The notes under the pieces: model-generated
Seen by the model: the letters and a program-made list of their open reading frames with translations, nothing else
Database searches by the model: none
Told to the model about the DNA's origin: nothing
NCBI GenBank assembly: GCA_916610825.1
Contig: OU744446.1
Span: 8,892,309-8,956,308 of the forward strand
Direction: 5' to 3'
DNA from: Haliclystus octoradiatus
Taxonomy: Eukaryota; Cnidaria; Staurozoa; Stauromedusae; Haliclystidae
DNA length: 64,000 bases
Position numbers and translations under genes: made by a program
Part shown: piece after piece, positions 1-58,026 of the stretch
Layout of the letters: each line of letters opens with the position of its first letter
Numbering within the stretch: position 1 is the first letter of the stretch

Positions 1-54
1 TCATAGATTCAATTATAATAAGGTTTTTTCACTCTATCATAATTTCTCTTCAAG

Positions 55-318
55 ATTTGGGAAATGTTTTGTTTACCATTCCAAACCCAAGAACAGCTGG
101 TACTGCATTGGTATTGGGATGTACTGCACCAGACAGTAATCCTGAAGCAACGATTTCTTACACTATTTCTCGTCTGGATGGTATAGGATCAATAGCAATT
201 TCAGATCCTTACATACCAGCATATTCAGACACTGGCGCAACAGTGACATGCAAGGTGAAGCATAATGGCGTTGGAGGGTTTGGACCGAACACCAAGAACA
301 CGACTTTAATTGTCCAGA
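55..318 (+). CDS. Gene 0 Ig-like exon A (partial gene, upstream exons outside window)
   Basis: This is an Ig-like domain exon bounded by an AG acceptor (53-54) and a GTAAGT donor (319), phase 1 at both ends, 264 nt. It encodes an I/C2-type Ig fold with the two core cysteines (in LGCTAP and TCKVKH), a DTGAT-TC motif corresponding to the usual D-x-G-x-x-x-C before the second cysteine, and a C-terminal LIVQS strand; the core Trp is replaced by Tyr (ISYTISR). It is closely similar to gene 2 exon A. Its PAN, microexon and Ig-B exons would lie left of the window. Domain assignment is from motif; the role is unknown. Confidence 0.82.
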
Positions 319-1150: not shown

Positions 1151-3067
1151 ATATAATCGCGTATTGCGATTTATACTTTTATCATCGTGTAGCCTTAATA
1201 TGGATGCTAGAGAATCTGAGATCGGATCTGATATATTTTTCAAGAAGCCTACCTCAAGATTCAATTGTCTTATTTATACACGATTGTCTTATTTATTACA
1301 CTGATTGGTTAAGAAGTGTTATTTTCAATGTAGCAATAAAATATTTTGTGGTTTACTGGTGAAGTAGCAACTTTACGACATTTTACGGTGAATAAAAATC
1401 CTGTACATCAATCATAATTAATTAATAAATCAATTTATGCACCTTGCTCCGCTCTCTATCTGATTTTTACTTTGATGTGGTGATATTCATCAAAACCTTG
1501 GGCTGCAAAATTAAGTTAAATTATAAGCTAGAATGGTAACATCATATAAAGGGAAAACCAAAAAACTGGTCCACATGAACAACAAACTGAAAACAGACAT
1601 CGTTGCTTTATGTAAAACGAAACAATATAATAAACAATCATCAATTATAAATGAATGGTTTCTCAGCCTTTATAGAAAAAGTCTCACTTATATTACAGGA
1701 TGGGGGATGATTTATTATGTATATTAATTAAAGTGTCGTATTTAGACGACTGAAAACATAAGTAATCGACGAGATCTGAAATTTTGTATTAAGAAACAGA
1801 CCATTATACTGACGAACAAACCATGAACTAAAGCATTGAACGACCACCTAAATTCCCTGAGCAGAGTAGTTGAAATTATGTTGAAATCTAGATCTGAAAT
1901 AGTTTTATTTTTTAATCGCAATTGTGGCCTCACGAAGAACCCTAGATAGGCCTGCATCAGTTGTTCTAATTCATGAACACATTTGCATTCACAAATCTTA
2001 TCAATGAACAAACAAGACTATCCATAGTGAGATTGATTGATGTAATGCTTGTAACCTAGGGGAAAGAAATTTAACATCGAATAACATCGCTGCTACAGGT
2101 GCATCAGACCATATAGTATATGTTGCGTAAATTACACAACCGAACTACGAAGGACACAACCTAAGCTGATAAAGTACAGAAAACAAATAATACTAACTTA
2201 CTACGGGAGATAGATTGGAAACTAGTCTAAATAAGTCACAGAGAAGAATTAGTAGCAGCACTACGACAAGCAGTTGTATTCTGGTACAAATGGTTTACTG
2301 CGGAGTTTAGTGCAGTAATAAAAAAGTAATCGCCAAAATAATAACAAAATTTATAAAGGTGAAAATAAACCGTGAATCAGTGCAGAGATCAATGAGGTCA
2401 TATAAATGCAGGACAAAATTTCACAATTACAAAAAACGATGAAAATGTCTCTCAATTTAGAATTGAAAGATACCTATTACCAACATTTATACGGAAACGA
2501 TTAAAAGAATATGTGGAAAAAGAAGCCTTCAAGATTTCATCGCAATTTCTGTAGATTACCAGAATTGGAATAGCAAAAGTGCTACAATTTTCAAATTTGA
2601 TAAATTACACGAGTTGTCTGATTACACACTCAAACCCAACAGAAACAATTCTTAGTAATAACTTTACCACGTATTGCACAATCCTTTGAATTGGACTGTA
2701 CCCGTTTCTTCTATTATTTTAGGTCAATTGATTCAAAAATTATAGACTGTTTCGTGTTAAAAAGGAATCACATTTCTAACAAGCAAAGCGTATCTATGAC
2801 ATATCAATAAAACAAGAGGTAAGAGCAAATGAAATTGTTAGATAATGCTTGTTTGTAGAGTGACTCTCATTGTAGGATCATATTGCATGGTATGGTATCT
2901 GATATTATACGTGCAATACAAATTAATATCGAGACCTATATCTATATATAGTATAGAATTGCGTATTACATATTTAGCTAAAAAATGGATAGCATCGTGA
3001 CTACTTCCTATATTTAACGGTGGCTGTTTTTAATAATTCCCCACATAAAATAAGTTATAATGGGTAG

Positions 3068-3378
3068 AGATATTTGAAGGAGTAAATTGCTACCACAAGA
3101 TACAGCTTTACTACACTTCTGCATATATTAGGTGCAATATTATCTACCCAGCAATTCCATTTGGTTGTTTATTTATCGAATATGTGAAAATGACAGTGGA
3201 GATAATTAATAATGGAAATGGAATGCTTTCCACATCTTATGCTGCTGACAGATTAGGTGTTTATTCTTCAAGAGTAATCTCAATCAATATAATCTTCTTC
3301 ACAAAGGCTTCCCAGTACCGCATCTGGCATATGGATATATGGATATATGGATATATCGAAACTGGCAGAATTGAATGA
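3068..3378 (+). pseudogene. Gene 0 CTD exon, decayed
   Basis: This stretch is clearly related to the CTD exon of gene 2: it encodes YKIQL-type, PFGCLF, NGNGML, AADRLG and SQYRIWH segments in one open frame. A TAG at 3065-3067 could act as acceptor with the right phase (two bases then codons). The first conserved cysteine (CYAP start) is gone. After RIWH the conserved EEDRTG...DNSGRSCAS ending is replaced by a short GGATATAT tandem repeat and a stop at 3376-3378. I read it as a pseudogenised terminal exon, though a truncated secreted product cannot be excluded. Confidence 0.72.
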
Positions 3379-4976: not shown

Positions 4977-5362
4977 TTATTGTAGTGAAATGACGACAAA
5001 TGAGAGCGAGGCACACGAGCGTCCACTGTTGTCGCTTTCCACACTTCCAGTTCGATCTTCTTCGTGCCAGATACGATATTGTTTTCCATTTTCAAGATAA
5101 ATGACATCTTTAGAAATCACAATATTGGCTGAAGGTCCTAATCCATCAGCAGCTTCAAATGTTGACAGCAGCCCATCTACATTGTCAGTAATCTCTACCA
5201 TAAGCCTTACCCAACCAGGAAATAAGCAGCCGAATGGAGCCACTGGGTGAGTAAGACTGCATTTTATAGCACCTGATGTATGAGTAAGTATTATCTTGTA
5301 GTAATCAGTAGCACCAGCAAATATAAAGGGGCCAAACCGACTGAGTGTTGGAGCATAGCATA
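4977..5362 (-). CDS. Gene 1 exon 5: C-terminal four-Cys domain
   Basis: The acceptor is at 5363-5364 and the stop at 4977-4979. It encodes a domain beginning CYAPTLSRFGPF, with conserved PFGCLFPGWVRLMVEI, AADGLG and QYRIWHEEDRTGS blocks and a DNSGRSCAS ending. Four cysteines are conserved with genes 2 and 3. I cannot assign it to a named family with confidence. Confidence 0.85.
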
Positions 5363-8300
5363 CTATAATCAAAACAACAAAATGTCATAAATACAACAAG
5401 ATTTCGCTGATCTATTTATAGATGAAACAACAAACTGATGATAATGATTTGGACATTCTGAACAAAATTGGATGTCAATCTCACTCAAAAGTGTCCCTTC
5501 ACATTTGTCCCCTAATATGGCCGCTTTTGGCTCTGTTGTGTAATGTAATTTGTAATCGTCAAGCTATTATCTCTTGTACATGTGAACTTGTATTATATGT
5601 GTAACGTCATCACCCTACGTGAATCCTGTAATATCCATGTATAATGTTGAATAATAAATCAGTTCCAGTTTGACTGTCGTTGTGTTCGCTGGGACTCAGA
5701 GTCGTTTATAGCAGATCCTGCTATACGAAAATTTGGCGTCCCTTATTGGGCATCAACTCCAATCAATTCGAAGTATAAGCAATTTATCAAGTTGAATAAC
5801 CTCTGTTTATGGTTTAATTAAAAGAAACACAAGGGGATATCAAGGGAAGAGCACGTTAAAATCACCTCTGCTAAGACACCGGCCAACAAGAACACAACGA
5901 GATGAAGTGAAATAATAAAACTATATAAAAGACACAATGACACTATTGAAAATGCTTAAACAAGCAAGCAAATTGCTGAAACATGCAATGGACTATTAAA
6001 CTGCTGAAACACGCAGGGAATTGTGTAGAAAATGAAAGGTTGTGTTTGATGATGTTTATGTTTTAAATTTTAGACTAATTTTAGGTAATCTTATTTGAAT
6101 AATTTGTTTGAAGTAGTTGTTTGTTGAGGTTTGAAAATTATTGCCGCTCCTTAAAGTCGGAAGGGGGATGTTTTGTAATTTAATTTGTAATCGCCAAGCT
6201 GTTATCTCTTGTATATGTGAACTTGTATTATATGTGTAACGTCGTCACCCTATGTGAATCCTGTAATATCTATGTATAATGTTGAATAATAAATCAGTTC
6301 CAGTTTGATCGTCGTTGTGTTCACTGGGACTCAGAGTCGTTTATAGCCGATCCTGCTATACGACAGGCTCCTCATATGCAAGCAGCCCATAGATGTTAGA
6401 ACAATGAACCTGAGAAACTGCATCAGATAAATAGAACGATCAATCTTAATGCAGTTTATATGTTTGTTTGTGTATAGCTATAAGCTAAACAAAATCTCAA
6501 ATAAGCCACGATATGAAGCTCTTCAAACCAACATAGATTAGCATGAATTATTCTTCATGAAAGCGAGCGATAGCTACATTAAGTAAGCATTGTTCACAAG
6601 GATTGAGTTTTTCCAGATAATGAGAGGAAATTTAAATATCATATTTACCTTGAACGACTATAGTGATACTTTTATTATAAGGTCCATAGTCACCAACTCC
6701 ATTATGCACTACTTGACATGTGATAGTTGCACCATTGTCCATATATGTTGGTAAATAAGGATCCGAGATATTGGTTGGGCCCGTACCATTGACTCGAGTT
6801 ATTGTGTAGGAAACTGTCTCCTGTGGATTACTATTAGGTGCTATACAACCTAATGTAAGCCACTCACCAGCAGTGACTAGGTTGCTGATGTTGAATTGTA
6901 TATCTCCAAAATCTATAACAATGATTCAATATATATCATGTTATCGAACATACTATTATTATTCAGAATTGGAGCTGAAATTCTCATTTTGAGCAACAAT
7001 GGTATAATATTGCAAATACCAATTTGCTCGACACATGAAATATAATTTTGAACAGCTAATGGTTTTGATAAGCACATATTTGTACGCACATTTCTGCTTA
7101 CCATGCATCAATCTGAATTACTGTGTTCATCCTGCCTTGCATTATACCATGCCGTAGCACAATCTACTGAAGTTTAGGATGAAAGCAATACCAGCAATCA
7201 ACTGATGAAGCCTCGTAACAAAGCTTTACGATTACAAGTTAATGATGACTGTTCAATTTTATGGAGATATTTAGAAAACAGTGATGGATGGTCCATGTCA
7301 GAAAGCTAATATCAAGACTACTCTATATTCAAAAGGAGTAAATCAAATGTTTTACTTTTGGAATGCTTCGTACTATATAGGTATATTAAATGTTACTTGT
7401 GTCTTGGCAAATTTAAGAACAGGGTTAAACAAATGTTCCAGTGATGTTTATATGCTCTTGAAATTCGACACAATACTTATTCGGTATTGCTAAATAGAGA
7501 GCGAAATAAACATCGAAGCATGTCTGAATCACGACTGGAAAGCAACTATTCTATATATGATATACTAAAATATCTTGCCTGTAAAGTGAATCAGCACACA
7601 GCGGAAAACTGGACAGACAAACACCACATACACAGACTGTCGCATATTTTTTCTGCATTCTCAAGCGCTTTCACGTTTTCTTCGTGAAATTTTAACACAA
7701 TTACAATGCTTTTCCATATAATTTAATTGTAGGAGGAAAAGGATGATCGCAAGCTACCACATTCAAAATTATAATCTTGCAGTAAAACGTTTCGAATATT
7801 GCCTTATAGTTAAAAAGTGGACCTATCACGACCCCGGAAATATTATGGATTCTGTAGGCGAGCTTTACAACAGAAATCGGTCCAAATTACTAATCGAGAA
7901 GCAAGGAAACAGTCGTGGTAGAATCTTTCAAAAACAATATCTTTTTTATTCAACTGACTATATATATATTTTTTCAATGCCAAAATTTTGATTGACTTAC
8001 AACAGACTCTGTTTTTGAATCGTCGATTTGATAGCACAACATGTGTGATAATATTAACAAGCTACGTACAACCCTCAAATGTTTGGCACTTTTTTTCGTT
8101 TGGTAACATGAAAGTCCCCAAGCAAGAGAAAAGGAAAAACCATTACAACCATAATTTAGGTTACATATACTTACTATGAACAGTCAAATTCACACTTATA
8201 TTCTTTCTTCCAAACTCATTTCCGCATTCATACTCTCCTTTACAGGTGATGATTGCATTGTTATCTGCTATTGTTGGGGTGTATGGGCTGGATACAGAAG

Positions 8301-9777
8301 TAGCATTTATATCACCAGGACGAAAAATTGTGTAAGAAATAATGTTCTGTGGATGAACACCGTGTCCAATGCAACCCAACTCTAATGCGACATTAGCTAT
8401 AACAGGATTGGCAATTTTGAAAGTAATTCCACCCATTTCTAGAGATTGAAGCATATCAATAGAATATTATTCATAGATTTTGATTCAATAATGAACATAT
8501 ATATGTTTTAATCTAACCTTACACGAAAAAGATTAAAACACCTCACAAGATGTCTAATTCTTATATAAGATTCCTACTTTACGATAGAAATAGGGTATGT
8601 ATATTGAATATCAGAAGAACTTGGACATTATAACTGGATTCCGCAAAGTATTTACGAAAAGACATGGGATGGGACAGAACAAAGGAGCAAGCTACCAGGC
8701 TCCATTCTGTGATGAATAGATCGGTTCTGTGCTGCAAGCTTCCAAAAATAGTCATTTTCACAAATTCATGCAGAGGAATCAAAACATAACTACAGCAAAG
8801 AGACAGGTTATCTAAGAATGTACAAAATAGTTGACATGAAATGTTCACGTACCTTTTTCTGGAAGTTTCTAGAAAATAGAAAGACAAAAAGGTTAGTTAA
8901 TATCCAAATAGCATTTGAGGATGAAATAAAGGTTTCATGAATGTCTAATGATATTTTCTAATAATAGTAACAGAAATCATAGAATATATCCAGCATTTGT
9001 ACCCTATCGTTGGCACCTATCAGTTGAACTGGTATTTCTATCTGATACATAGAATGTCTGTATAGTTCGACGTATTTCTTTCATTGTCAATACAACTGAT
9101 TCAACTTGCTACATAGTTCACTCCTACCATCAATATTCTGGCATTGAGAAATTCTCTTGTCAATCTAATTTGAATCGTCAATTGAAATGGAAGTCTCATA
9201 AGTAGATTAATAATAGAACGTGGAATTACTTTCCACTAAGTATTATATGAAGTTTATTCCATCACACATTTCAGAGTGAGTCATGGTGGTAGCTCTTCGT
9301 TCCTCTTTCCATAAATATACCCGCTACCAACGATGACTTAACTCCGTTAATTGTTAACTAAATATCTAAGGAATAAACGGGTAATGAGACTTTCAGCAGC
9401 TATATTGGACAAGTATACTATTTATCGAGTATATCATCACATAGCTCCTATCTTCAAATATTCATTTATAAATTATAGTAAATGCTGATTGAGCTCACCT
9501 TCAGATTTGCTCCATTCATAGAGAGAACTTCTCTTCTGTCTGCTGATGATAGTAGAATACAATGGTTTTTCCTCTCGAATCTTAGAAAGTTAATTGCTTG
9601 GCAACAGGGATTAGCAGAACATGAACTGACACAACCTTGTAATATTGAAGAGGTATTCTTCTCAATGACATTTCCCATTTCTTCTAAAATAAATCCAATG
9701 GTGTTTACATAATGTATGCTGATTGAGTATATACCTCCCATATGAAATAGATATATCAATACCATAGACATATTCAT
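4977..9777 (-). CDS. Gene 1: secreted PAN-Ig-Ig-CTD protein (402 aa, five exons)
   Basis: Multi-exon gene read on the minus strand: exon 1 9499-9777, microexon 8853-8868, Ig-B 8175-8438, Ig-A 6649-6912, CTD 4977-5362. All boundaries are AG/GT, phases are 0,1,1,1, and the 1209-nt product joins without stop. The start was chosen at 9777 because it aligns with the signal peptides of genes 2 and 3; an in-frame ATG exists at 9843. The protein has a hydrophobic leader, a PAN/apple-like module with C-x3-C-x5-C-x13-C, two Ig-like domains and a four-Cys CTD, with no transmembrane segment, so it is probably extracellular. It lies tail to tail with gene 0 and head to head with gene 2. A TRIM retroelement sits in the last intron. 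Function is not known; recognition, adhesion or matrix roles are inference. Confidence 0.82.
5534..5730. repeat. TRIM 5' LTR
   Basis: Left 197-bp LTR. It begins TGTTGTGTAATG and ends CTATACGAAA immediately before the primer-binding-like site. Confidence 0.9.
6169..6365. repeat. TRIM 3' LTR
   Basis: Right 197-bp LTR, preceded by a purine tract and followed directly by the GGCTC target duplication. Confidence 0.9.
6649..6912 (-). CDS. Gene 1 exon 4: Ig-like domain A
   Basis: The acceptor is at 6913-6914 and a GTAAAT donor begins at 6648. The exon is 264 nt, phase 1-1, fully open, but it has no ATG of its own. It encodes FGDIQF..LGCIAPNSNPQ..SYTITR..ISDPYLPTY..DNGATITCQ, matching the A exons of the other copies. 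An NGTG/NISD region offers possible N-glycosylation. Confidence 0.85.
8175..8438 (-). CDS. Gene 1 exon 3: Ig-like domain B
   Basis: The acceptor is at 8439-8440 and the GTAAGT donor begins at 8174. The exon is 264 nt, phase 1-1. Ig-like, with LGCIGHGVHPQ and IITCKGEYECG; the CKGEY signature after the second core cysteine distinguishes B from A exons. Confidence 0.86.
8853..8868 (-). CDS. Gene 1 exon 2: 16-nt microexon
   Basis: A sequence of 16 nt encoding KLPEK plus one base, flanked by TAG acceptor and GTACGT donor. It is required to convert the phase-0 end of exon 1 to the phase-1 start of Ig-B. The same 16-nt unit occurs at the equivalent place in genes 2 and 3. Confidence 0.83.
9499..9777 (-). 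CDS. Gene 1 exon 1: signal peptide and PAN/apple-like module
   Basis: It encodes a hydrophobic leader (MNMSMVLIYLFHMGG then IYSIS) and a small module with C-x3-C-x5-C-x13-C ending HCILLSS, like the core of PAN/apple domains. The donor AAG|GTGAGC ends it in phase 0. An upstream in-frame ATG (9843) would add 22 polar residues ahead of the leader and is less likely. Confidence 0.8.
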
Positions 9778-11485: not shown

Positions 11486-11499
11486 GATGTCCCCCCTAC

Positions 11500-18784: not shown

Positions 18785-18851
18785 ACAAATCATACAGAAC
18801 TATTTTTTACTAAACGAAATGTCAAATTGCATCAAGACAGATTTATCAGAC

Positions 18852-19136
18852 ATGTATATTCCTAACATTTGGATGTTATTATTTATACTACAAATTAAAA
18901 AAGTTTACTCCATTAGTCTTCATTTTACCAACATCGATGGGGTGGTGTTGGATGAAACCGGTATTCTTATTCGAAAGGCATCTATCTCATCAATACAAAA
19001 GTGCGGAGCTTTATGCTCACAGAACCCTATTTGCCTAGCTGCAAACTTTTATAAGCTGTCTAGGAGAAACAATTGTGTATTGTTATCGTCTGAGGATAAT
19101 AAGCAAATATCATCTTCAACTGGCGCACTGATGAGG
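18852..19136 (+). CDS. Gene 2 exon 1: signal peptide and PAN/apple-like module
   Basis: Leader MYIPNIWMLLFILQIKK followed by VYSISLHF and a C-x3-C-x5-C-x13-C module ending NNCVLLSS. The donor is AGG|GTGAGT, phase 0. Confidence 0.82.
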
Positions 19137-22100
19137 GTGAGTATTTGTTCGTTAAAAAACACTATAATTCTTGTTTTGCTTCGAATCTGCTATAGTTTGG
19201 TTTGAAGCTGAGGATAAGGCTAATCAGCAATTTTGAAACATCTTTATCGTCGTCATTCATTATTAAGATTCTTATAAGAAGCCATTACTCATTGTAAATA
19301 TTTAGAATTGAGAGTTCAAGTATATATATCGCCTTTCGGGACACAACGGATTTGGATAGAACTTTGTTTTCCATCCGTACTTCTCACTGTTGCGTTTTTG
19401 CGTAGGGTGACCCTTTCCCCGACGGTCAAATTTGGTGTTGAACATGGAATTTTTGAGATTCTCGGGTTACACTTTTGGAAACCAAATAATCAACGAAATT
19501 ATTTCACAGGAGAATAGAAATTGACCCTGATTTTCGGTCAACATTCCACGTTTTAATTGCTACAGGCAAAACGAAAGTCGAAATCGTTTAATTAATTCAT
19601 AAAGTATTTGAGTTTTCATACCGATCCTGCTAGCTACCTTTCTTATAGTCTAATCTATTCCAAAAAGAGCTATATACCTCCAAAGTTGTAGCTATTTGTT
19701 TTACCATTTTCTAGCACATACTTATCGCTCGCATCAGCAGTGTATCATGTTGCTATGCAACGCTGATGGAAGGTTTTCGTCTCAAAATTAATCTCAAATC
19801 AATTCCTGTCATATTTAACAAGACTACCAGTTTCATTGCGTAGCTCTATCGTCATTTATAGTTGTTATTTACAGAACGTCAGATATTTTGAGGCAATCAA
19901 TCTCAAATATCAATCTCAAGCACATTTTGAAGAGCAACCGACGGAACTAGCTCAAACTATATTTACATAATTTGCTGAATTAATTTAAAGTGATAACTGC
20001 ATACAATAACTTCACGTAAAGGAATTTGGTATATGCTGCTGTTCAGGCGTCAATGTATAAATAGGATAGAATGAATATTCAAGATAATCAAACAAAGCAT
20101 TTTTAACTCAGACAGGTTAGAATAATCTACTGGTGACCCTGATGGAATCAAATATCGAAATATTATTGATTTTAATTATTAATCGAGTTGTTTTCTTACA
20201 AAACCCGATGTATATAGACAAGTTTATTTAGCGATTCAACTCTCAATTCTAACTATTTACAATGAATAGTGGCTTCTTATAACAAACTCCATTAATGAAT
20301 GACAATGATAAAGATGTTTCATATATAGGATATTCTAAGTGTCTATTCTACGAAAAGGCCACGACGTCACTTTTCATTTTTTTTAGGTTATAAACTATGC
20401 CATGGATACGCGTTACGAAGTTATAAAATATGCCTTTACGCGTTACGTGTCTATCCAAAGGGACCTAACACGGCATCAAGGCTAATTTTATTCTCTAAAA
20501 AAATGTAGTAGGAATGAGCCTCGAATGTGTTCAAAGGTATTGTTCTGATAATTTGAAAATTGATATTGAATTTTTACAAAATTTTGAGATACACTTTTTC
20601 TTCGGGGTTCAGCTTTATATGCCTCCTCGGAGGTCCTTGTCAGTTTCATATTTTCCATTGTTAATACCAGTCCGTAGGAAAAATGCGGGATAAATCTAAA
20701 ACACGTTATTGGTATAGACTATATAGGTGATAGATTAAATAATGTAACCCTGTGCACTGATCTACACATACTATCAAACCATGCCTGTCAACAGTGTCAA
20801 TTATAATATGACGAGACGTAGACAACTAAATTAAACTTGAATCTTGACTCTGAAGCCTTTTGTTTGATCGAAATCCACATTGGATATCTATAAATAAATT
20901 TTACATAGCATTTTTTTGTAGCAATTTATATCAGTATTAATTATAAATGTTTAATTGCATTTCAGAAAGTTCCAGAAAAAGGTATGATGAGTTGTCATTG
21001 TTATCTACTTTACGCTATTTCCATTTGTATGTCTGTAGTATGTAAGGCGGGGATTCACGATACCGTTTTAGATGCAATATACTTGAAACAAATATCAATG
21101 GATTCATCATTAACCAGAGGGGTACATGGCCGGCTTCATTTTTTAAATAAATACATCTAAGTTAAGAATTACCATATTCCATATTCCATATTTATTTGTA
21201 TCGAGGAGTGGAGTTTTATGTAATTATTAAAGGTTTTAGAAAAAATTCCTAGCCACATTTCTGCTGAGTTCTGATTAAAACTTCTTTGTCTACCTAAAAA
21301 GATATTTCCAATATTCTCGCAACTTTTCATGTTTTCGTCGTAATCGTCGTTTTTCTTTTGATTCAGTCAATGGGATTGGCATTCTGTGTAAATCTATATA
21401 GTCTGTATAGAAATCCCATGTTACTTCCGTATAGAGTCTACTCGGGCATTTCGTATGGATATACCATTTCAAAATACGATTTAGAATGGAATTTCTAGTA
21501 GTTTGAACAAGATCCAGGCTTAGATTCTTAGATTGGAGGAGTTAAGCAAAGTGTTAAGTTTGTCAGGTCGAAGTATAATTTAATTTCAAAGTCTCAATCA
21601 GCAATACCGATAAAGGTCTCCCAACAGGTATACAGTAATTAGTTATCAATTTTCGTTGGTTTCGATATTAACCTGCTTATCTGAGCTTTACTGCAGTATA
21701 TTGAAACAACTGTTGCAACGTTTTTAAAATACGATTTTTCGCTCAATTATTTCAGCTGGTAGGCTCTGGTTAATACTAAATAGCTATTGGTGTCCAATTT
21801 ATTGTATCATTACAAAGTGAGAATATAATATTTAATATTCTACTAGCAGGCCAATACGAAAATCGAGCAAATCGATTGGCAAGTTGTAGGCCTATTGAAC
21901 GGTCGCTTCTTATTTTTCCCTCTATGGCATAATAAAGACACAACGGATGATTGCGTTTTTGATGCTTTTAAATCAATTAAAACTCATGGTATGATTATAT
22001 ATAACAAAAGAATGCTAACAAAGGTTTCAAAACATTTAGAATTACTTTATTGTGTCAATATTTTACTGTAATTTACATGTTAAAAATCTGAGATAATTTT

Positions 22101-25100
22101 ACTTGATAAAATCAATAAATTTTAAAATTGACAAAGTATATATATGTAATGGCTGATTATTATTATTCTACAGAACTTTGCTATATAACTAAACATTAAG
22201 AAAATTAAATAAATTCTATGCAAGTATTTAAAGATAACCAGAAGCTTTACTTTCTAATATTACCGTATAATAGTATGTGCCGTTGACGTCTGCATGCCGA
22301 GTCCATCTGCAAACTGATTTTTTTTATGCTAAGCCATGATGACCATCTGAGGAAACATAAGTGTTGCAATTGCAGACATCTTGATCATAAATTTTCAAAC
22401 CGAAACGAAGCGATATGGCAAAGCTTACTATTCTGTAAAGAAAAGATGGAGCGATATTGATGATAGTGTGTTAATCCAAGCATTTGCTTCCATTTCCTTG
22501 GTACCAAATGGGCGTGTTTTGCCTTCGACTGTTGTATCGATTGAGTGAAGGGTATCGTTTCCAACTTTTTCAATTCCTTCTCCCAACATTTTTGCTTGGA
22601 GGAATGATTTTCTGCGAGGATGATGCTACATACTGCATTGATTGATGGTTTCTTCAAATCCTAGTGTTGTACAGCTTTTAAAGACTGCAGGGATAAGTGA
22701 AGATACTAGAGATGAAGTCCCATCTACTGAGGCAGCAAATTCACATGGAGGGATTAACTGTGTTCAACGAATGCCAATACTACAAAGCGAGATTGGTAAT
22801 GATGCCTAGATTCATGAGTTACCGTCGAGATGGATGTTTAAAACTTCTTGTGATGCATCTTTACATACTTCGTTCCAATTTTTGCAATTCTTTTGAGTCG
22901 TAACAAGGACTACTCCTTAAAATATGGAGGTTTTGGCGTTTAAAAGCAGTTTTGTTGTAAATATGAGCCATGTTGGGCGTCCAGAGATTTCAAGGGAGGT
23001 GACATTATGCTTAAAGCAGTTTTAGAGTTGTCTCCAATATGGCTGCACCCAGCAATTGAAGATATGTGGAATGGATTTTCTTAAAATCTTCTATTGTACT
23101 CAAAATTGCGGTCTCTGTGTGCATGATTACTTTACATGTTGAACAATTAAGTGACAGCCCAATGTTGTATCCACAAAATTCAATCAAGGCTAATGGCGAC
23201 AGTTGATCTATGACTCGTTGTAAAGTCAAACTGAACAGTGAGGGGCCGAGAGGATCGCCTTGTTGCACTACTTCCGAATCTTGACATGTTAAGTATAAGG
23301 GTACAAAGTTACTTTAATAAGCAGGCAATTTAGTTAAAAATAAATGCTTGTAACCTCTTGTATAGCCTACGAACGAAATTTCTTACGATCAGATTAACTA
23401 TTGAGACGCAGTTTATCTTCCTTCTTTTTTCAGATTTGGGTGGAATTGTTTTTGATCATCCTAATCCTGCTCCATCTGGAAGCCCGTTGGCTCTATTATG
23501 TTCTGCAGAAGGAGTAAATCCTCAAGAGGTGTTTTCTTATTCAATCGAACGACTTGACGGTAGCACCCCAACAAATATATCTGATCCATATACACCCACA
23601 CCTGGAGACAATGGAGCAACAATCACTTGCAAGGGAGAGTACGTTTGTGGTGGTGGATATGGGACAAAAACTAAAGAAACAACTTTAATTGTTCATTGTA
23701 AGTAGAAATATCTACACAAGCATGTTTTTTCAGATACGAAGAAGCCTTTTTCTGTCAAAACATTATCAAAAACATCCCCGAGCTTCAATTGTTACTGAAC
23801 AGTCAATATAATACAACGAAAGGTTTGGTTATAGGATTGTTGGTCCTCATTCTTGAATGTTCATTGTAAAACTTATACGAACAGAAAAGGATCCCTGAAG
23901 GTTTAAGACTATCCAATTATAATTCATTGAATCAAAGCCTGGGAACGAAGTCTATAAAACCACAGTTAATACGCTGACTTAGAATCGTTGCAGAAGCATT
24001 AAATACTCTCTCAGAATTGCAAAGAGATATTTCATGTCTAATATGAGGATTACATTTTTGAATAGTGATACGATTCATATACGATTACTTTTCTATAAAT
24101 AATCATTTTATATAGAACGTCCTTAGATGGGTTGATCCGTGATAGAGCCTTGGATTGGTTTATGTTCATATCTGAAACAAACAATTTATGAAATTTCAAT
24201 GTTTCATTTGCTAAATTGGAATAGTTCTTGGTTATTAAAAGTCGTCAAATTGAGTTAATTTGATATATACTCCGTGGTATACGCTGCATATAGTCGTATA
24301 GAAGTCACGGGTTATTACCGTATAGAGTCTATTCAGGCGTTTTGTATGGATAGATTGACTTCCTGCTGCAAACTGTCCAGTTTCCATCTGCGAATCAACT
24401 TTCGATCTGTGTACTTCCTGCCGTGAGGTTCTCTAATGGTATGTTGGATGCAAAAAGACAATAATTAATACAGGGTTTTGCAATTCTGGTATTCTTGCTA
24501 GCAAACCTTTCAATTTATGGGTGCTAGCGAGATCATCCACATAGCACACCCCACGCAAAAGATACGAAAGTAACCCCTTCTGGTTTGAGATCTCCCTTTG
24601 GTCATCCAAGTTATCATTCATCAGTTAATATTGATTCATATATAAAACAAAGTGTAGGGGTACAACGGATATCACATTTGACCAATCGAAATGACCTACC
24701 ATTAAAACAGGAGGTTGAGGACCTAATGTTACTATGGTGCCCACACCATTAAATATTTTAAATGAGTTTAAGGAGGTTTGGAACAGTAGATCCAAAATTT
24801 TCTTCTGTTGAATTTTCTTAAATTATTTCAGAGAAAAAAACGCAAAAACAGATTAATGGTCACATCATTTTAATGAAGCAACACAAACAGTAAAAGATAA
24901 ACGTCTTTGGAATATTATTTTAAAATCATAATTGTTATTGCTTTTTTACTTTGAAGATAACTAACACACATGGAATTTCAGTAGCAGTAATGCAAATAAA
25001 TAATTTATTTTACTTCTATTTTTTTCTCCTTTCATTATATATTGCCCTTTTTTACTCTATCGTAATTTCTCTTTAAGATTTGGGAAATGTTTTGTTTACA

Positions 25101-38092: not shown

Positions 38093-38129
38093 TTGCATAT
38101 GGCCGACGAACGTTTTTACCGATTTAATC

Positions 38130-39417: not shown

Positions 39418-39419
39418 CT

Positions 39420-42897: not shown

Positions 42898-43192
42898 GCA
42901 TTTTGCTTTATTTTCAACACAAACTCTACCACGATAAGGTCGTTTCGGATTGTTATGAAAGGTATACAAAGCCTCATGGTAAGTATATAAGTTTATGTAT
43001 AAATATTTATGTAGTTCTAACAGGGAATTTCGAAATAAGATATTGTGTCAACAAACCCATGCATCTATATTGCGCATCTGGTCTCAATATTTCGAACGTC
43101 GATGTCGTCAATCACAATATCTATCATATTTTGGACAAACTGTCGTGGCTACGAAACGTTGAAATTCATTTGTTAGCTTTCATGATTTTAAC

Positions 43193-45208: not shown

Positions 45209-45588
45209 CTAAGCCACAATAAAAGATAAAGAAGCACACGTTGTTCCAGTGTTGTCATCTTCAAAAAAATTCGTACGATCTTCTTCGTGCCATATCTTGT
45301 ATTGCTGGCCATTTTCGAAATAAATAACGCTTTTCGAAATTACTATTTTAGCAGAAAGACCCAGTCCATCATAGGCTTCAAATATTGATAGCAAGGTCCT
45401 TCCGCTGTCACTAATTTCCACCATGAGCCTTTCAAATCCAAAGACGAAACAACCAAATGGAGCTACTGAGAGAGAGATCCCTTGACATTTAGCGTATCCT
45501 TCTGTATGAGTAAGCTTTATTTTGTAGTTACCAGTTGCACCAGTAAACACGAATTGGCCAAATTGTTCATCCCGACCCCCATAGCAAA
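45209..45588 (-). CDS. Gene 3 exon 5: C-terminal four-Cys domain
   Basis: TTTTAG acceptor at 45589-45590. Begins CYGGRDEQFGQFVF, then YKIKLTHTEG, AKC, PFGCFVFGFERLMVEI, AYDGLG, QQYKIWHEEDRTN, DNTGTTCAS. The usual CLFPGWVR is changed to CFVFGFER. Confidence 0.85.
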
Positions 45589-51500: not shown

Positions 51501-54500
51501 TGATGATACTTTGACAATTATGCCAAACCTATACGAAGCAAATAATCTACTTCAAAAGTTAAGCAATGAACATCCTGCATTGAAATTTACAATGGAAATA
51601 GTGGAACAGAATAAGTTGCCTTTTCTCGGCGTCTTAATGGAGTTTACTAATAATATATTTGAAACTAGTGTTATACATATTACATTATTAGAGTCATGTA
51701 GATTCTAGTTATAAAAAGGCATTATTGATTTACCATGCTTGATCGTGCTAATCGGCTCTCATCAACAAATAAAAACTTTGATAAAGAATGTGTTATAATA
51801 CGTTAGTAGATTTTTAGCTTTAAAATATCCAAGTCAATTGATCGAATTTTATATCAACAAATTTAAAAAGCAGCGTTTTGAGGTACACTTGATCTGCCAA
51901 TCGCAAGCAGGAGTAACAATGATATTAACATATCTTTACCCTTTAAGGACCAAATTTCATCAAATACATTAAAAAAAAAACAGTTATCAAACTTAAGTGG
52001 TAATATCGGCCAAGTTGTAAGACCGATTTTTAATACTAGAAAACTTGTCGATGATTTGCAATTACTTGATCCTAAGCCACTGATCTTGTCTCGTCAATGC
52101 GTTGTCTATTGTTTTCAATGTGACTTGTGTGATGCAAGTTATGTTGGCTTCACTTGCCAACACTTACATCAACGCATTGACGGACATAGCGGATCAGCTA
52201 TTGGATCACAACTTCGACATTCTCATGGTATCATTGTCCACGATTGCCCTGATACCAACACTTTGTCTGCTTTGAGACACTCAAGAGGCCAAATCCCTCG
52301 CCTGATGGCTGATCATTGTTTAAGCCTCTTTCAATTCTCATTACGCACCGAGCGTAATCGTATCAGAGTGTTGAGTGTCGTATTTTCCCCGTGGGTTGTT
52401 TTCCTATTCAGATAACAAGATATAGCTATTCTCGTGCCAGCAAGAATCAAAATGATGTTTCCATGTTTACCAAATTATTCGTACTTACTCTGCACTACTA
52501 TTATTATGGTTTTAGTGTGCGGTTCAAATTCACCAACACCGGTGTGCTCCACTTTACATGTGATTTTTGCATCATTGTCTGCATACGTCGGAATATACGG
52601 ATCGGAAATAGCAGTTGGAACACTACTTCCAAGACGAGTAATGGTGTAGGAAATTGCCTCTGTCGGATTTGAATTAGGCGCAGTACAATCCATTATTAAG
52701 GAAACGCCAGCTGTTAATGGATTGATAATTTTGAAACTAACTTCTCCTAGATCTGAATAGGAAATAAAAAGGTATAAATTAAATAACATGGTTTCACATA
52801 CTCTCATACAAAACTTATTTTCTTCTAAATTATGATTGTCTTGTTGAATGCCTAACGTGATTAAAGCGTTAATTAAATTTCTCATATGATGATGATGATG
52901 AATATATATTTCAATCAAGTAATTACTAAATAACAATTACATGATTGTAGTCTCCCCGTAAGCACAAATGCTTGTTTATTTGGGGGACTAACTAATTTAT
53001 ACATATTAATATGTATACATTTTTATTTTATTTATTTTTATTTTTCTACAAATGAGATAAATTAAATTAGCTGAGTGGGAGTGTGAGTGGTAGTCATTTC
53101 ATTAAAGAAAGAATGAGGAGTAGAATGAAACAAGAGAGATAGATCAAAGATGATGAACGAAAAAATAAATTATGATTTTGATAAAATAGGAAATTTCAAA
53201 GATAGTTGAAAGCAAAGGAAAATGTTGTTGTGAAAGAGTGTTAGAATTGATTAATTTGAACATACAAAGCAACTGTTTTGTGAGCATGAAGCGGAATAGT
53301 TTTGAATGAAAACTGTTTTTAAATGTTTAAGAAAGGACTTTCTTGATATGCTGATATCAAGTGTGTGGGAGCAATTATTCCAGAGAGTAGGAAATTGATA
53401 TATGGGTAAACGTTGAAGATAGGAAGTTCTGGCAAAAGGTACAAAAAACGTATTGGTTTGGCGGTGTTTATTTAAAATAAAATGGAAATTGTCAAGTAAA
53501 ACAGATGGGGATTTTTTCAATATGATATTATAAAGATTATAGCATACGGATTAGCTCAGATGGCAGAGCAATCAAGGTTATCATATTTGATCGACTGTGT
53601 TTCAAATCCCCTGAAGGTCAACATCAACAGATGCATTATATCTATAACATCAAATTAATACCATCTAGGGATCTCGGACGGAATGGTCCAAAGGGAATTG
53701 CATTGTGATTAGCCGCAGCGCATCGTTGCACATTGACAATCAAGGCCTATCTGCCATGAAATCTGTTGAAATTTTGAAATTGATCTTCGGTTTCGTGGCT
53801 GGGAGTATTCAGCATCATTGTTCTGGGCAAAAAGGGCCACTCCTCTAGAAATAGAGGAGTCGTACTGGTCAGAGCCATCTATTTACAAGAGTTGGGACAC
53901 GATTTCATGTGCCGCTATCGTCTTCTATTGGACAGATGCCAATCACGTGATTTTTAAGACGTCATTCGTGTTCTTTCGGCACCAGGATTCTTGTTCTTTT
54001 GGTACCAGGTTTCCTGTTTTAAGCGAAGCGCGCGGAAAAATACAGCTTTTATCAGTGAAAACAAACATAGACTATTAAATTATTAATTGTTGTGTTAATA
54101 GACGAAATAGTAATCGAAATAAAAGCATCGTTTACTATTCCAACTGGGGACAAGAACTAGAAAAAAGTTGTCTTTGACTGCAAAGAATAAGCGTAAGAGC
54201 GTAAGAGATGTAGCAACATGCTGATGAGATCGATAACAAAGTATACATTGAAGTAAATTTTTATTCTAATTTTGAAAGTCCAGCAAATATGGAGAAAGAC
54301 AATTAATAATGGCTATAATACTCTTGTTAAACGATCGCAAACCATTTCACACAGTTCCAAAATGGCTGAAAAAACACAACATTCTCTTGCACATGCGCAC
54401 TGCTGTTATAAACGTGCTCGGGTCCAGGCCAAAAAACTCAAATGGCATGAGTGTCCCAACTCTTGTAAATAGATGGCTCTGGTACTGGTGCCTTTGGTAG

Positions 54501-57500
54501 GGCGATACCGTCTCAATTACTTTATTTAAATTACTGTGCAACTATTTTCGGATCAAACTTTTTGCTGAATCTGGAATCATATCCCTTGCTGACTGTAGCA
54601 ATTTATTTCTCTCACTTACAATGAACGCTGAGTTGCACTTCTTTTTTCCTAGTGCCGTAAGCGGAGCCATGGAAATATTCTCCTTTACATGTGATCATTG
54701 CAGCGTTATCTTCAGTTGTCGGTGTGAAAGGATCAGAAATAGCTGCTTGAGTTAGACTTCCACTACGAACAATGGAATAAGAGACAATCTGCTGATGATT
54801 GACTCCATGAGAATTGCAGTCTAAATTCATTGGAACATCAGCAGGGACAGGTTCAGGATGATTAAATGCAATTCCTCTCAAATCTGAAACTGAAATACGG
54901 ATAGATTATCTCATCAGTTCCAAAGTATGAATCAAAGCAAGTCAAAGATGAGATATATATACTGTTCTCAGATTGGTCAAGTTTGTTCGCAAATTTTGAA
55001 AATATAAGACATGAAAACCTTGGCTAGGATGATCATCATGCTCAAAATAAAAATCAAAGCACATCAATACAGGGTTAATGTACCACTATCATTTGCTTCA
55101 AGACTGATGCATCATTAACATTGAAAGTAGTCAATGAAACCATTAGGTATATTTGTAACATTAATTTACCATACTGATTAGCAAAATTGACAAAATTAAT
55201 TCTCTGAATAATACAATCAAATCAGGTATTATAAATGAAGCAAGTCAAATACATACAAGAAATCAAGCCTTTATTTATATATATATATATCATACCTCCA
55301 TCTGTAATTTTCTGAAACAAAAAGGTACAAACAAAAATAGTTAAAATCTTCAAAATGTAAATACCAGAGAACTATAATTGAAGTTAACAATTTGCATGGT
55401 TCTAAACTACTTCGCTGTAATAACGCAAATAATTACAATTTAAAATTGAAGCAACCTTATAGGAGTATACAGCAGTTGGAAGCTCTGGGATTTATCGATC
55501 CTCTTGGATATTGTGATAACGCTATAGAGAAGTACTGATCAAAATTTATTGGTACCAACCTCTTTGCAGGTGACCTTGGAAATGATGGGAACGAACTGCA
55601 AATCCTGCAATCCTGAAAAGACTGGACAGCAGGTTCATATATTTGAGAGGAGAAATTGATCCATCAGATCAATGGTCAAGATACATTTTTTATTTTCTCC
55701 AATACTTTATATCAATTTGCTGTAATCCTAATGGCCTAAAACCTATATGACTTTTTCTATAAGTATTCAACTTTCTATACTTGAAACTGTCGAAATTTGA
55801 TGTTCAATTTGCCTGTTTTAAAAGCATGTTTATTTCATCTAGTGTTATTGCCCATGTGCATGTAAAAAAAATTAACCCGGGTTCGACCCTAGTTTGCATT
55901 CGTACTACAACTAACCCAGGTCGAACCCACATTAACTAGGGTCGAACCCACCTCATTGAGATGGGTTAAAACTAACCCGGGTTAACGCTGATAACCCCGG
56001 TTAGTTGAATTCACACTACTTACTTGTAACACTGGTTAGCGTTAACCCGGGTTAAAAGTGTGTAGTGTGAAAAGGGCTTACATCTATACTATATTTGCAA
56101 ACAGGAAGACTGCACAATGAACTCTTATACTAACGAGAAATTCAGTGAAATGCATTACATTTTACAAGTTCAGGTGTAAGCCATGTCACAAACAGCACAA
56201 TAAATTATCCCATTGCTCTCAAATATATTGTCTACACATTGTCATTTTCATACGATAGATATAGTATATACAGTTTACTGAATATTTAAAAGGATGCAAA
56301 ATTTAGAATAAATGTGAGACTGTAGAGTTTTGTATGAGATTATATTTAATATATGTTGACTCTACAAAGGTTGAGATAGAAAAAGAGAGATTACATATTG
56401 CAGTGATAATTTACGTGTAGAGAAAGACTTATACAACTACGGAAGTTACAATATATAATAAACCATTACAATACGTGCTTATTTTATAAAACATGGGAAA
56501 AAGTTTATTGAAAATATTTTATCCTATTATACATTTTTCAGATCTGCAAACTTAGTTACCATGTTTACTAATAATGATTTTGCTGGTGCTGTCCTATACA
56601 GATGTTCCAATGATTTTATTCCCTGCTGGTTTAGTATAGCTATTTCTATTAAGTAAAAATATTTTGAAACCAGCATGAACATATATGCTTTCAATAGATC
56701 TGTGTTTAGAGTGCGCTTTGGAGTACTTTTTCGACTATAATATATCGATAGATTTCATTTTCCAGTATGCGTTGTCTGTCCAGCTAGATAATTCTCTCAG
56801 AAATCTGTTAATAGACAACTTTTAAGCTAGAACATGTCGGGAGCTATCTACTATAGGATCTGAAATATTACTGCATCGTTACTTTTAAGTACATCGTTAC
56901 TTGTTATACTTTTCAAAATATATTATTAACAAAACAGGGTCCCTAAATCTGCATTTATAGGTTCTTGTTCCATTTCATTGCTTGTGTACATTTTTTTGTT
57001 TTCATATAAAATGAAGGAATGATTGGCGGCACAAAATACCCCCTACAATCGAATACAAGAGATTAATAATCACTAGAAAAAACGCAGTCCATATTTGGAG
57101 GATTTGTGCCACGTGATTTAAATTTATGACAAGAAAATTTACGACATTCAACGGCAACCACTAGACGTATATGAGTTTTCTTGCTATTTCGGGTATATAC
57201 CGTACAGGATATAGGTCTATATATATAGCCGCACGGCTTCAATCCAACGGCTAGAACACATATTTTGAAAACAGCGAAGAAGAGATGCGATAAATTGAAT
57301 AATTTTCATAAAATCAAATCAAATGTATTCTGTGATTAAAATTTCAACCTGGAATTCAAAAAAATTAACAGCCTGGGTGTTGCGGCATTCAGATGTAGCT
57401 ATTTTTTATTAATAAAAACATTTTAAGGGTTTGAAAACCATTATGTCGGATTCTTCGCGTTCTATTTTGAAATGAAGTAGAAAACAAAATATTGTTGTGG

Positions 57501-58026
57501 TGAAATGGATGAGAGATAATTGATATTCCAGAAAAACGTTATGCTACGTGATTAATAAAATGATTGCATCACTCTTGTTCGTAGCGGGCCATCGTGATGT
57601 AATCCCTTATTAATTAATGGAAATAGGCATCACCTTTGTTAAAAACTTCAACTGGACTTGTTAATTATTAAGTAGAAATCGTATGTTAATATATATTTAC
57701 TCTATACATGTTTATATGTGATCAGTATAGAAGAAGTAGCATACCTTGAGAAATACACCATTTGAAGAAATGAGTTTATAATCGGTTGAAAAAGTGAGTA
57801 GGATGCAATTGTTCATCTTTATTAAATACAAGAAATTCGCTGCACCACAAGAAGGAATTGCAGAACACAGTATTCCACATTTTCGTTGTGATGACGATGT
57901 CTTCCTGGCAATAACACTGTCGCATTCATCTGAAACATATCCATCAGTTATAATAAAATGAAAACTTATTGAATATATTCTTCCCAGTTGAAACAGCATT
58001 ACTGCTAACAGAACATTAGTATACAT
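45209..58026 (-). CDS. Gene 3: secreted PAN-Ig-Ig-CTD protein (401 aa, five exons)
   Basis: Minus-strand exons: 57745-58026, 55296-55311, 54620-54883, 52489-52752, 45209-45588. The total is 1206 nt, in frame to the stop, with phases 0,1,1,1 as in genes 1 and 2. Signal peptide MYTNVLLAVMLFQLG, PAN-like module with C-x3-C-x5-C-x13-C, Ig-B, Ig-A, CTD with four conserved cysteines. It is tail to tail with gene 2. It is the most expanded copy: the last intron (~6.9 kb) holds a CR1/jockey-like LINE and a Penelope-like element, and the Ig-B/Ig-A intron holds a LINE fragment and a SINE. Protein sequence differs considerably from genes 1 and 2, so it is an older paralogue. Function unknown. Confidence 0.83.
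46120..50110 (-). mobile_element. Decayed CR1/jockey-like LINE in gene 3 intron 4
   Basis: Minus-strand pieces in order: ORF1-like (about 50078-49389, charged, no sure motif); endonuclease 49075-48308 (YFNARSIKSHLDLLN, CCTETWLDD, INVYRPPNG, VGDFYFPNISW, NSDHSSV); linker 48206-47817; and RT 47710-46529 (NLDCAKAFDTVSH, QTGVPQGSVLGPVLFLIYIND, LYANDCKLFF in place of YADD, TYVRPILEYASEVWSP). The 3' end is an ATTC microsatellite (GAAT repeat on plus at about 46122-46146). Many stops; the catalytic YADD reads YAND. Confidence 0.88.
50163..50864. mobile_element. MITE-like segment with CACAGGAAAAACG ends
   Basis: A 13-bp inverted repeat (CACAGGAAAAACG / CGTTTTTCCTGTG) bounds 702 bp of AT-rich non-coding sequence. 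No convincing target duplication, so moderate confidence only. Confidence 0.5.
50865..52440. mobile_element. Penelope-like element, inverted copies
   Basis: A minus-strand reverse-transcriptase fragment (51517-51113: EQIDGVAMGSPLGPLMANV, HVDDTLTIMPNLYEANN) faces a plus-strand copy (51436-51708: RYIDDTLTIMPNLYEANN, KLPFLGVLMEF). The plus copy continues to a GIY-YIG endonuclease region at 52056-52330 (VVYCFQCDLCDASYVGFTC, HLHQRIDGH). The arms at about 50926-51420 and 51440-51780 are inverse copies; the right arm has a short internal deletion. GVAMGSPLGP and the CxxC before YVG are characteristic of Penelope-like elements. Stops make it inactive. It ends about 50 bases from the Ig-A exon of gene 3. 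Confidence 0.88.
52489..52752 (-). CDS. Gene 3 exon 4: Ig-like domain A
   Basis: TTCAG acceptor at 52753-52755, GTAAGT donor at 52488, 264 nt, phase 1-1. LGEVSFKIINPLTAG, MDCTAPNSNPT, SYTITRLG, ISDPYIPTYADNDAKITC. The DNG of other copies is DND here. Confidence 0.87.
52940..53535 (-). mobile_element. 5'-truncated LINE 3' end (same family as 12840-14462)
   Basis: Encodes FFVPFARTSYLQRLPIYQFP, TLWNN and SISRKSFLKHLKTV up to a stop at 53251, matching the C-terminus of the 12.8-kb copy. It then has a 3' UTR ending in the shared stem-loop (52954-52986). Its 5' end abuts the SINE head at 53548. Confidence 0.82.
52954..52986 (-). other. LINE 3' stem-loop, copy 2
   Basis: CCCC/GGGG outer and AAGCA/TGCTT inner pairing, with an AAATAAACAAGC strand as in 14431-14462. 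Confidence 0.7.
53548..54521 (+). mobile_element. tRNA-derived SINE interrupted by a hAT-type MITE
   Basis: The head is tRNA-like, starting GGATTAGCTCAGATGG, with a box A (TAGCTCAGATGG, 53552-53563) and a box B (GTTTCAAATCC, 53599-53609). A body and a tail ending GATACCGTCTCAATTACT follow. Without the insertion the SINE is about 354 bp. The tRNA part is not a functional tRNA: the arms do not fold well and there is no matching 3' acceptor. Confidence 0.8.
53870..54481. mobile_element. hAT-like MITE in the SINE
   Basis: Inverted ends CAGAGCCATCTATTTACAAG (the repeat runs on for about 30 bp), 612 bp, flanked by the 8-bp duplication GTACTGGT (53862-53869 and 54482-54489). The SINE copy at 1110 shows the unoccupied site as GTACGGGT. 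CAGAG ends and an 8-bp duplication fit the hAT superfamily. No transposase. Confidence 0.92.
54620..54883 (-). CDS. Gene 3 exon 3: Ig-like domain B
   Basis: TTTCAG acceptor, GTAAGT donor at 54619, 264 nt, phase 1-1. LRGIAFNHPEP, LDCNSHGVNHQ, YSIVRSG, ISDPFTPTTEDNAAMITC and CKGEYFHGSAYG. Confidence 0.87.
55296..55311 (-). CDS. Gene 3 exon 2: 16-nt microexon
   Basis: Sixteen nucleotides (KITDG plus one base) between TTTCAG and GTATGA, in the same place and phase as in genes 1 and 2 although the encoded residues differ. Confidence 0.83.
55850..56082. repeat. MITE-like palindromic repeat with TTAACCCGGGTT words
   Basis: TTAACCCGGGTT occurs near both ends and AACCCGGGTTAA in the middle, with degenerate GCCC...TTTAACCCGGG termini in inverse orientation. 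Variants such as AACTAGGGTCGAACCC occur between. No target duplication assigned. Confidence 0.65.
56321..56470 (-). repeat. Solo copia-like LTR
   Basis: Second copy of 11338-11485. On the minus strand it starts TGTAATGGTTTATTATATAT, followed by TGTAACTTCC, and ends CTCTACA. No internal element sequence on either side. In the first intron of gene 3. Confidence 0.65.
57745..58026 (-). CDS. Gene 3 exon 1: signal peptide and PAN/apple-like module
   Basis: ATG at 58024-58026; leader MYTNVLLAVMLFQLG then RIYSISFHF; KCGILC, PSC, NNCILL cysteines; donor AAG|GTATGC, phase 0. Confidence 0.84.

What the first reader, a model, noticed from the sequence alone, without database searches (positions are those of the whole stretch)
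1..58026. Clustered family of secreted PAN - microexon - Ig-B - Ig-A - novel CTD genes
Three complete five-exon genes and one decaying copy share an unusual domain order and join in frame to 401-402 residues. I do not recognise this architecture as a described family. The set has the look of a lineage-specific, rapidly duplicating extracellular recognition or matrix family (immunity, allorecognition, gamete or tissue adhesion are possibilities, not shown). Splice signals, phases and lengths are read directly; the biological role is inference.
Basis: partly seen in the sequence, partly recalled or inferred. Interest (0 to 1): 0.93.

Follow-up and report, generated by a model that had tools for sequence, protein, structure and literature searches.

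The report
Stalked-jellyfish modular secreted lectin family
A stalked jellyfish carries a cluster of genes for apparently secreted proteins that join a PAN domain and two immunoglobulin-like domains to a lectin-type sugar-binding domain known from a sea anemone; they belong to a very large family in this animal and may serve to recognise sugars on microbes or other cells.

Summary
Three complete genes (PAN exon, 16-nt microexon, Ig-B, Ig-A, C-terminal exon) join in frame to 402, 412 (401 from its second ATG) and 401 aa. The decaying copy continues upstream of the window. The "novel CTD" is an AJLec-type lectin domain (sea anemone, PDB 6a56; profile E 3.1e-13): four disulfide Cys in 17 of 17 copies, Ca2+ ligands in 15, 14 and 17 of 17. 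It is hugely expanded: at least 232 places. All 28 PAN exons found have a lectin exon downstream (24 distinct; chance 0.3). Nine loci read, all on chromosome 1, have Ig exons between; six are open. Two-domain PAN-microexon-lectin genes and a PAN-TSP1-Ig-lectin order use the same phase-1 slot, so exon shuffling fits. Replacements concentrate in loops that bind sugar in AJLec, though not in every pair. Best reading: secreted, diversified glycan-recognition proteins, similar in plan to snail VIgL proteins but built independently. Sugar binding, expression and role are untested.

The parts
9499..9777 (-). G1 exon 1: signal-like N-terminus and PAN domain
   Evidence: PAN_1 E 0.0028, below the curated cut-off
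8853..8868 (-). G1 16-nt microexon (KLPEK)
8175..8438 (-). G1 Ig-B exon, phase 1-1
6649..6912 (-). G1 Ig-A exon, phase 1-1
   Evidence: a row of the alignment behind the G2 Ig-A model
4977..5362 (-). G1 AJLec-type lectin exon with stop
18819..19136 (+). G2 exon 1: PAN (second in-frame ATG at 18852)
   Evidence: PAN_1 E 8.8e-7, above cut-off
20966..20981 (+). G2 16-nt microexon (KVPEK)
23434..23697 (+). G2 Ig-B exon, phase 1-1
25078..25341 (+). G2 Ig-A exon, phase 1-1; the Ig exon that was modelled
29852..30228 (+). G2 AJLec-type lectin exon with stop
57745..58026 (-). G3 exon 1: PAN
   Evidence: PAN_1 E 0.024, below cut-off
55296..55311 (-). G3 16-nt microexon (KITDG)
54620..54883 (-). G3 Ig-B exon, phase 1-1
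52489..52752 (-). G3 Ig-A exon, phase 1-1
45209..45588 (-). G3 AJLec-type lectin exon with stop
54..317 (+). Decayed copy: Ig-A exon, still open; 90% identical to G2 Ig-A at protein level
3064..3363 (+). Decayed copy: lectin exon with no acceptor at the usual place; an 8-bp repeat (3329-3356) stands where the Ca2+-site motif should follow, and the motif and last Cys are absent from that frame

Best explanation
These are secreted, multi-domain Ca2+-dependent lectins. An ancestral gene PAN - 16-nt microexon - AJLec-type lectin gained Ig exons of phase 1-1 in its phase-1 intron and gave PAN-Ig-B-Ig-A-lectin proteins. The lectin head binds a sugar through a protein-held Ca2+; its surrounding loops vary between copies, so different copies should prefer different glycans. 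The Ig pair and PAN act as spacer, partner-binding or oligomerising parts. The most likely role is recognition of foreign (microbial) or other cell-surface glycans outside the cell, an innate-immune use like the snail VIgL/FREP proteins. Shown by sequence: exon joins, lectin homology, kept Ca2+ ligands and cysteines, shared intron slot, copy number. Indicated: loop diversification and recombination. Inferred: secretion, sugar binding, spacer role, direction of the domain gain, immune use.
Against: No expression, binding or localisation data. The galactose-contact Tyr97 has no Tyr counterpart in 17 rows by an ungapped extrapolation, and Arg64 lies in a loop of different length, so the sugar is unknown and binding could be lost. 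The CTD model is weak (pLDDT 60.7) and AJLec is not among the rows shown in its fold searches. The loop test uses strands from that weak model, and the loops were chosen from AJLec after the alignment had been seen; without the two C6 pairs it falls to p 0.03, and one pair (C10x/C5x) goes the other way. G1/G2 show no loop enrichment (p 0.22) and purifying selection overall (CTD dN 0.25, dS 2.4). No counterpart of AJLec's inter-chain Cys122 is seen in the window CTDs, which have four Cys each. In G1 the C-terminal 11-aa stretch is more hydrophobic (2.29) than the N-terminal one (1.84).
Confidence: 0.55

Rival explanations
1. Adhesive or mucus matrix lectins: the proteins cross-link glycans in mucus or in the attachment glue of a sessile stalked jellyfish, not foreign targets.
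For: Apparently secreted multi-domain lectin-type proteins with PAN and TSP1 modules; the species is sessile on seaweed (PMC9975415).
Against: Replacements concentrated in sugar loops in 9 of 12 pairs, and a C6 pair with 23 amino-acid changes and no synonymous-only codon, fit recognition better than a structural glue.
Confidence: 0.2
2. Self/non-self or gamete recognition proteins, with the Ig pair as the recognition surface.
For: Ig-B is on the whole less conserved than Ig-A or the lectin exon between window genes (45-55% against 56-58% and 55-67%); one copy is a mosaic of two neighbours.
Against: No membrane-length stretch in G1-G3, so not receptors by themselves; PAN is even less conserved (43-44%); polymorphism was not testable.
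Confidence: 0.12
3. Nematocyst or venom-associated lectins.
For: Cnidarian, apparently secreted, repeated duplication; no direct evidence in any call.
Against: Capsule targeting was not tested.
Confidence: 0.08
4. The exon chain is a chance arrangement or mostly pseudogenes.
For: 3 of 9 loci are broken; no transcripts.
Against: 6 of 9 loci are open end to end; phases and the 16-nt microexon repeat; 51 of 54 listed exon pairs have dN/dS below 1.
Confidence: 0.05

Closest known systems
AJLec, galactose lectin of the sea anemone Anthopleura japonica (PDB 6a56; PMC6070535)
   Same: Homologous lectin domain: four disulfide Cys, Ca2+ ligands, two collinear aligned stretches.
   Different: AJLec is a lone 164-aa domain that forms a disulfide dimer; here it is the C-terminal part of a PAN-Ig-Ig protein, in a medusozoan, with other sugar-contact residues. 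That paper's BLAST reported homologues in anemone and coral only (7 in Nematostella, 29 in Stylophora).
Snail VIgL proteins (FREP, CREP, GREP; passages of PMC5433772)
   Same: Plasma proteins with one or two Ig domains and a C-terminal lectin-type domain, multigene and diverse.
   Different: Lectin domain is fibrinogen-like, C-type or galectin, not AJLec-type; no N-terminal PAN in the passages seen; molluscs. Similar plan, not kin.
Two-domain PAN-AJLec genes of the same genome (C10:17145426-17147495, C5:7286348-7289210)
   Same: Related PAN, a 16-nt microexon with the same phases, related lectin exon.
   Different: No Ig exons; 235 and 258 aa.
Hydractinia Alr allorecognition proteins (recalled; one search is a listing only)
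   Same: Clustered cnidarian Ig-domain genes.
   Different: Recalled as transmembrane receptors; here no membrane-length stretch, and PAN and lectin domains are present.

Membership tests
AJLec-type lectin domain | Sequence homology to AJLec | tested here: met
   E 3.6e-4 for one CTD, 3.1e-13 for the 17-row profile; next hits E 0.98 and 0.57
AJLec-type lectin domain | Two intra-domain disulfides (Cys15-156, Cys48-61) | tested here: met
   All four Cys in 17 of 17 rows
AJLec-type lectin domain | Ca2+ ligands of the sugar site (E141, D150, N151 side chains) | tested here: met
   3 of 3 window genes; overall 15/17, 14/17, 17/17
AJLec-type lectin domain | Jelly-roll fold | tested here: inconclusive
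   All-beta model at pLDDT 60.7; AJLec not in the rows shown
AJLec itself (galactose lectin) | Galactose-contact residues Arg64, Tyr97 | tested here: inconclusive
   Leans to no: Tyr97 column, extrapolated ungapped, holds no Tyr in 17 rows; the Arg64 loop differs in length. Bears on galactose specificity, not on the domain family
AJLec-type lectin domain | Ca2+-dependent sugar binding | not testable with these tools
   Needs protein
PAN domain | PAN_1 profile | tested here: met
   G2 29.1 bits against cut-off 21.4; G1 17.9 and G3 14.9 are below it but 43-44% identical to G2 and each other
Immunoglobulin fold | Ig beta-sandwich | tested here: met
Immunoglobulin fold | Ig Pfam profile | tested here: inconclusive
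   Only sub-threshold hits
VIgL (FREP/CREP/GREP) | Lectin domain of fibrinogen, C-type or galectin kind | tested here: not met
   Lectin is AJLec-type; no such Pfam hit
VIgL (FREP/CREP/GREP) | Secreted, one or two Ig domains before a C-terminal lectin | tested here: met
   G1-G3, with an additional PAN; secretion by hydropathy only
Alr-like allorecognition receptors | Transmembrane receptor (feature recalled) | tested here: not met
   Best 19-aa hydropathy after residue 60 is 1.04-1.36 in G1-G3

The most novel reading that the evidence does not exclude
A cnidarian counterpart of the snail VIgL system that arose independently: a medusozoan turned the AJLec lectin into a repertoire of over 200 secreted recognition proteins, by repeated duplication, by swapping phase-1 modules (Ig, TSP1) into one intron slot behind a PAN microexon, by recombination between neighbours, and by positive selection on the sugar-binding loops.
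Probability: 0.35. Interest if true: 0.82.

Novelty: new variant of a known kind. Interest (0 to 1): 0.62.

Why it matters
It names a domain that looked orphan, extends AJLec-type lectin domains from anemones and corals (the range given in PMC6070535) to a stalked jellyfish, and shows them as heads of modular, apparently secreted proteins in large numbers. Ig-plus-lectin proteins with diversification are best known from snails. A second origin in a non-bilaterian would make it testable whether diversified humoral lectins are a repeated solution in animals without adaptive immunity.

Tried and rejected
'Novel CTD' rejected: AJLec homology. The Pfam scan gave no CTD hit up to E 10 in G1-G3. Protein searches of the large prokaryote/metagenome set found nothing, for G2 whole (5980 candidates, none at E <= 1) and for the CTD profile (321 candidates, none), so distribution in other animals could not be tested here. 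The CTD fold searches did not show AJLec; the model is weak and this is not used against it. 'Window genes are young' rejected: CTD dS near saturation. A single clean tree was not obtained: PAN separates the chromosome 1 Ig genes from two-domain genes (98/97), but the CTD tree leaves G1-G3, C6 and the other chromosome 1 genes unresolved. Exon-faster-than-intron between loci 8.23 and 8.85 was tested and is not significant over all aligned non-exon bases (CTD 8.0% against 6.2%, p 0.18), although within one 3.4-kb block the 3' half of the lectin exon stands out (12-13 mismatches per 100 against 0-6).

Full report
1. What was checked. The three five-exon genes are real open chains. Exon borders, phases (0,1,1,1 cumulative) and lengths were recomputed: 402 aa (G1), 412 aa from the first ATG or 401 from the second (G2), 401 aa (G3). 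Each gene has a 16-nt microexon between the PAN and Ig-B exons. A loose scan of the window for that microexon (up to 5 mismatches, AG and GT around it) gave these three and one other place, 53423-53438 (+), that belongs to no gene here.

2. Where it is. The window is G000:C1:8892309-8956308. G000 has 33 contigs and 261,861,806 bases; three contig lengths (39,977,743; 28,991,210; 20,733,292) equal the longest, N50 and N90 scaffolds of the Haliclystus octoradiatus assembly, which has 33 scaffolds and 261,898,343 bp (PMC9975415, part 1 of 2 read). The small difference in total was not explained. The window is therefore chromosome 1 of this stalked jellyfish (Cnidaria, Staurozoa).

3. The C-terminal domain. 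Against the PDB, one CTD hits AJLec (6a56) at E 3.6e-4; the next hit has E 0.98. A 17-row profile hits it at 3.1e-13 in two collinear stretches. AJLec residue numbers come from PMC6070535 (parts 1-3 of 6 read) and from the alignments, counted by hand. The four intra-domain Cys are kept in 17 of 17 rows; E141 in 15, D150 in 14, N151 in 17, Phe103 in 17; Tyr97 in 0 (column extrapolated); second-site D142 in 14, E148 in 9, N145 in 5, N21 in 2. The paper describes the same mix in AJLec homologues of Nematostella and Stylophora. I therefore file the CTD in the AJLec domain family, but not as a galactose lectin. The Pfam scan gave no hit for it.

5. The family in the genome. Two searches with different members give 150 places each (each capped at 150 scored of 372 candidates), 232 distinct places together; 171 lie in groups with gaps under 60 kb and 61 are alone; a run of 31 lies at C10:6.58-7.01 Mb. 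This is a lower bound and counts exon matches, some partial or with stops, not proven genes. PAN exons like G2's: 28 matches of 41 candidates. All 28 have a same-strand lectin exon within 35 kb downstream; four C10 and two C5 PAN exons share a nearest one, so 24 lectin exons are involved. In 2000 random placements (chromosome lengths of C2 and C4 approximate) the mean was 0.32 and the maximum 3. A reading frame between two C10 array lectin exons also looks PAN-like by eye.

6. Architectures. Nine PAN-Ig-lectin loci were read, all on chromosome 1: 8.23 Mb, 8.85-8.95 Mb (five), 16.86-16.92 Mb (three). For the other 19 PAN exons no Ig match lies between PAN and lectin, which scored 150 of 460 and 150 of 382 candidates; only some of these places were fetched. 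A 16-nt microexon candidate is found in 9 of 9 Ig loci. Six loci are open: G1, G2, G3, 8.23 (three Ig, 493 aa), 16.86 (413 aa), 16.92 (409 aa). Three are broken: the copy at the window's left edge (CTD; no acceptor at the usual place), 8.85 (stop and frame change in Ig-B) and 16.90 (stop in PAN). Of four two-domain candidates, C10x and C5x show a 16-nt candidate (IRQDK; for C10x it ranked second, and was taken because it matches the top one of C5x), C10:17164093 shows one (IIPEK), and C10:17139449 shows none that convinces. C10x and C5x join open to 235 and 258 aa when the lectin acceptor is picked to fit the frame. A C6 stretch has a PAN-like first exon (PAN_1 E 0.0035, below cut-off), a TSP1 exon (E 1.1e-4, above cut-off), an Ig exon and a lectin exon in order; TSP1 and Ig are of phase 1-1 read by eye; no microexon was sought there. 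The simplest history is a PAN-microexon-lectin gene whose phase-1 intron received Ig and TSP1 exons; loss of Ig in the two-domain genes is not excluded. Tandem Ig exons of the same type lie about 145-320 kb beyond the window's end (C1:9.10-9.28 Mb) and also on C6; the source is not settled.

7. Recombination. In the decayed copy the best match is G1 over PAN (80.6%), the microexon area (73.5%) and Ig-B (81.8%), and G2 over Ig-A (90.5%) and lectin (77.9%); the only other matches at E 1e-6 were to G3 at 67-69%. It looks like a mosaic with a join between C1:8887785 and 8892333; which copy is the recombinant is not proven.

8. Selection. Of the 54 pairs listed, 51 have dN/dS below 1 (0.10-0.92). 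The three exceptions: the lectin exons of C6d/C6e (3.97; 29 nucleotide changes in 23 codons, every one of them residue-changing, no synonymous-only codon), Ig-C of 8.23/8.85 (dN 0.053, dS 0.017) and c8.85/c16.90 CTD (1.38). The sugar loops were set from AJLec in the script that first printed the C6 pair, but after the alignment had been seen. C6d/C6e: 13 of 27 loop and 10 of 98 other residues changed, p 4e-5; C6a/C6b: 16/28 and 8/98, p 1e-7; 9 of 12 pairs (not independent, no correction) reach p < 0.05. In seven separate pairs the loops exceed other non-strand sites (74/190 against 52/258, Cys and Ca ligands left out), p 1e-5, or p 0.03 without the C6 pairs; C10x/C5x goes against it. Of the three window pairs, G1/G3 and G2/G3 show the enrichment and G1/G2 does not (p 0.22).

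9. Function. An apparently secreted protein with a Ca2+-type lectin head, varying around the sugar site, on a stalk of Ig and PAN domains, is most easily read as a glycan-recognition protein. In plan it works like snail VIgL proteins (passages of PMC5433772), but it fails their lectin-type criterion, so it is not a member. A 2021 survey of cnidarian pattern-recognition receptors names Ig and PAN among domains fused to C-type lectin domains (passages of PMC8260672); AJLec-type ones are not in those passages. A 2023 review (passages of PMC10377782) says that AJLec homologues are found only in cnidarians such as anemones and corals. 'AJLec' with 'lectin' occurs in only 4 of 5.39 million papers of the held library; passages of the other two hold it in a reference list only. 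I found no paper that describes PAN-Ig-AJLec proteins (one search listed 12 of 26), which covers open-access text only.

10. Verdict. Observation confirmed; interpretation partly supported; a new variant of a known kind, of good interest because of the scale and the module shuffling.

Noticed in passing
window 26542-29010 (-): LINE-like ORF of 822 aa with endonuclease and reverse transcriptase, inside the last intron of G2, opposite strand.
   Followed up: partly
window 46529-49108 (-) and 51421-52415 (+): Broken LINE-like endonuclease and RT pieces, and a stretch that by eye looks Penelope-like (no Pfam hit for 51882-52415), inside the last intron of G3.
   Followed up: partly
window 13082-13729 (+): Reverse transcriptase piece, below the Pfam cut-off.
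   Followed up: partly
window 37968-39417 (+): THAP-like domain (just below cut-off) followed by a DDE_Tnp_4 transposase.
   Followed up: partly
window 43163-43552 (+), 39959-40258 (-) and 60042-60488 (-): SAP-domain ORF, weak PHD/SCAND3-type zinc finger ORF and TNP-like transposase piece, probably further mobile elements.
   Followed up: no
window 32454-33707: Tandem satellite-like array of about 204-bp units.
   Followed up: no
window about 5545-5722 and 6195-6358: By eye, two nearly identical stretches in the last intron of G1, like ends of a short terminal-repeat element.
   Followed up: no
L007 and L008 (C6:24.53 Mb): Two neighbouring lectin exons differ at 29 bases with no synonymous-only codon, while 300-bp flanks in a forced alignment differ by 29% and 43%. 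This is unexplained; exon conversion followed by selection is one idea.
   Followed up: partly
L009 1443-1817 against L011 3310-3690: In a 95% identical 3.4-kb block the 3' half of the lectin exon has 12-13 mismatches per 100 bases, the other 100-base pieces shown 0-6; perhaps a conversion tract.
   Followed up: partly
C10:6.58-7.01 Mb: Run of about 31 lectin exons, four of them identical at protein level, in repeated blocks; looks like recent segmental duplication.
   Followed up: no
C10:2010229-2015052: Ig-B and Ig-A exons with no PAN or lectin exon found in the stretch read, C10:2006000-2024999; a partial copy.
   Followed up: no
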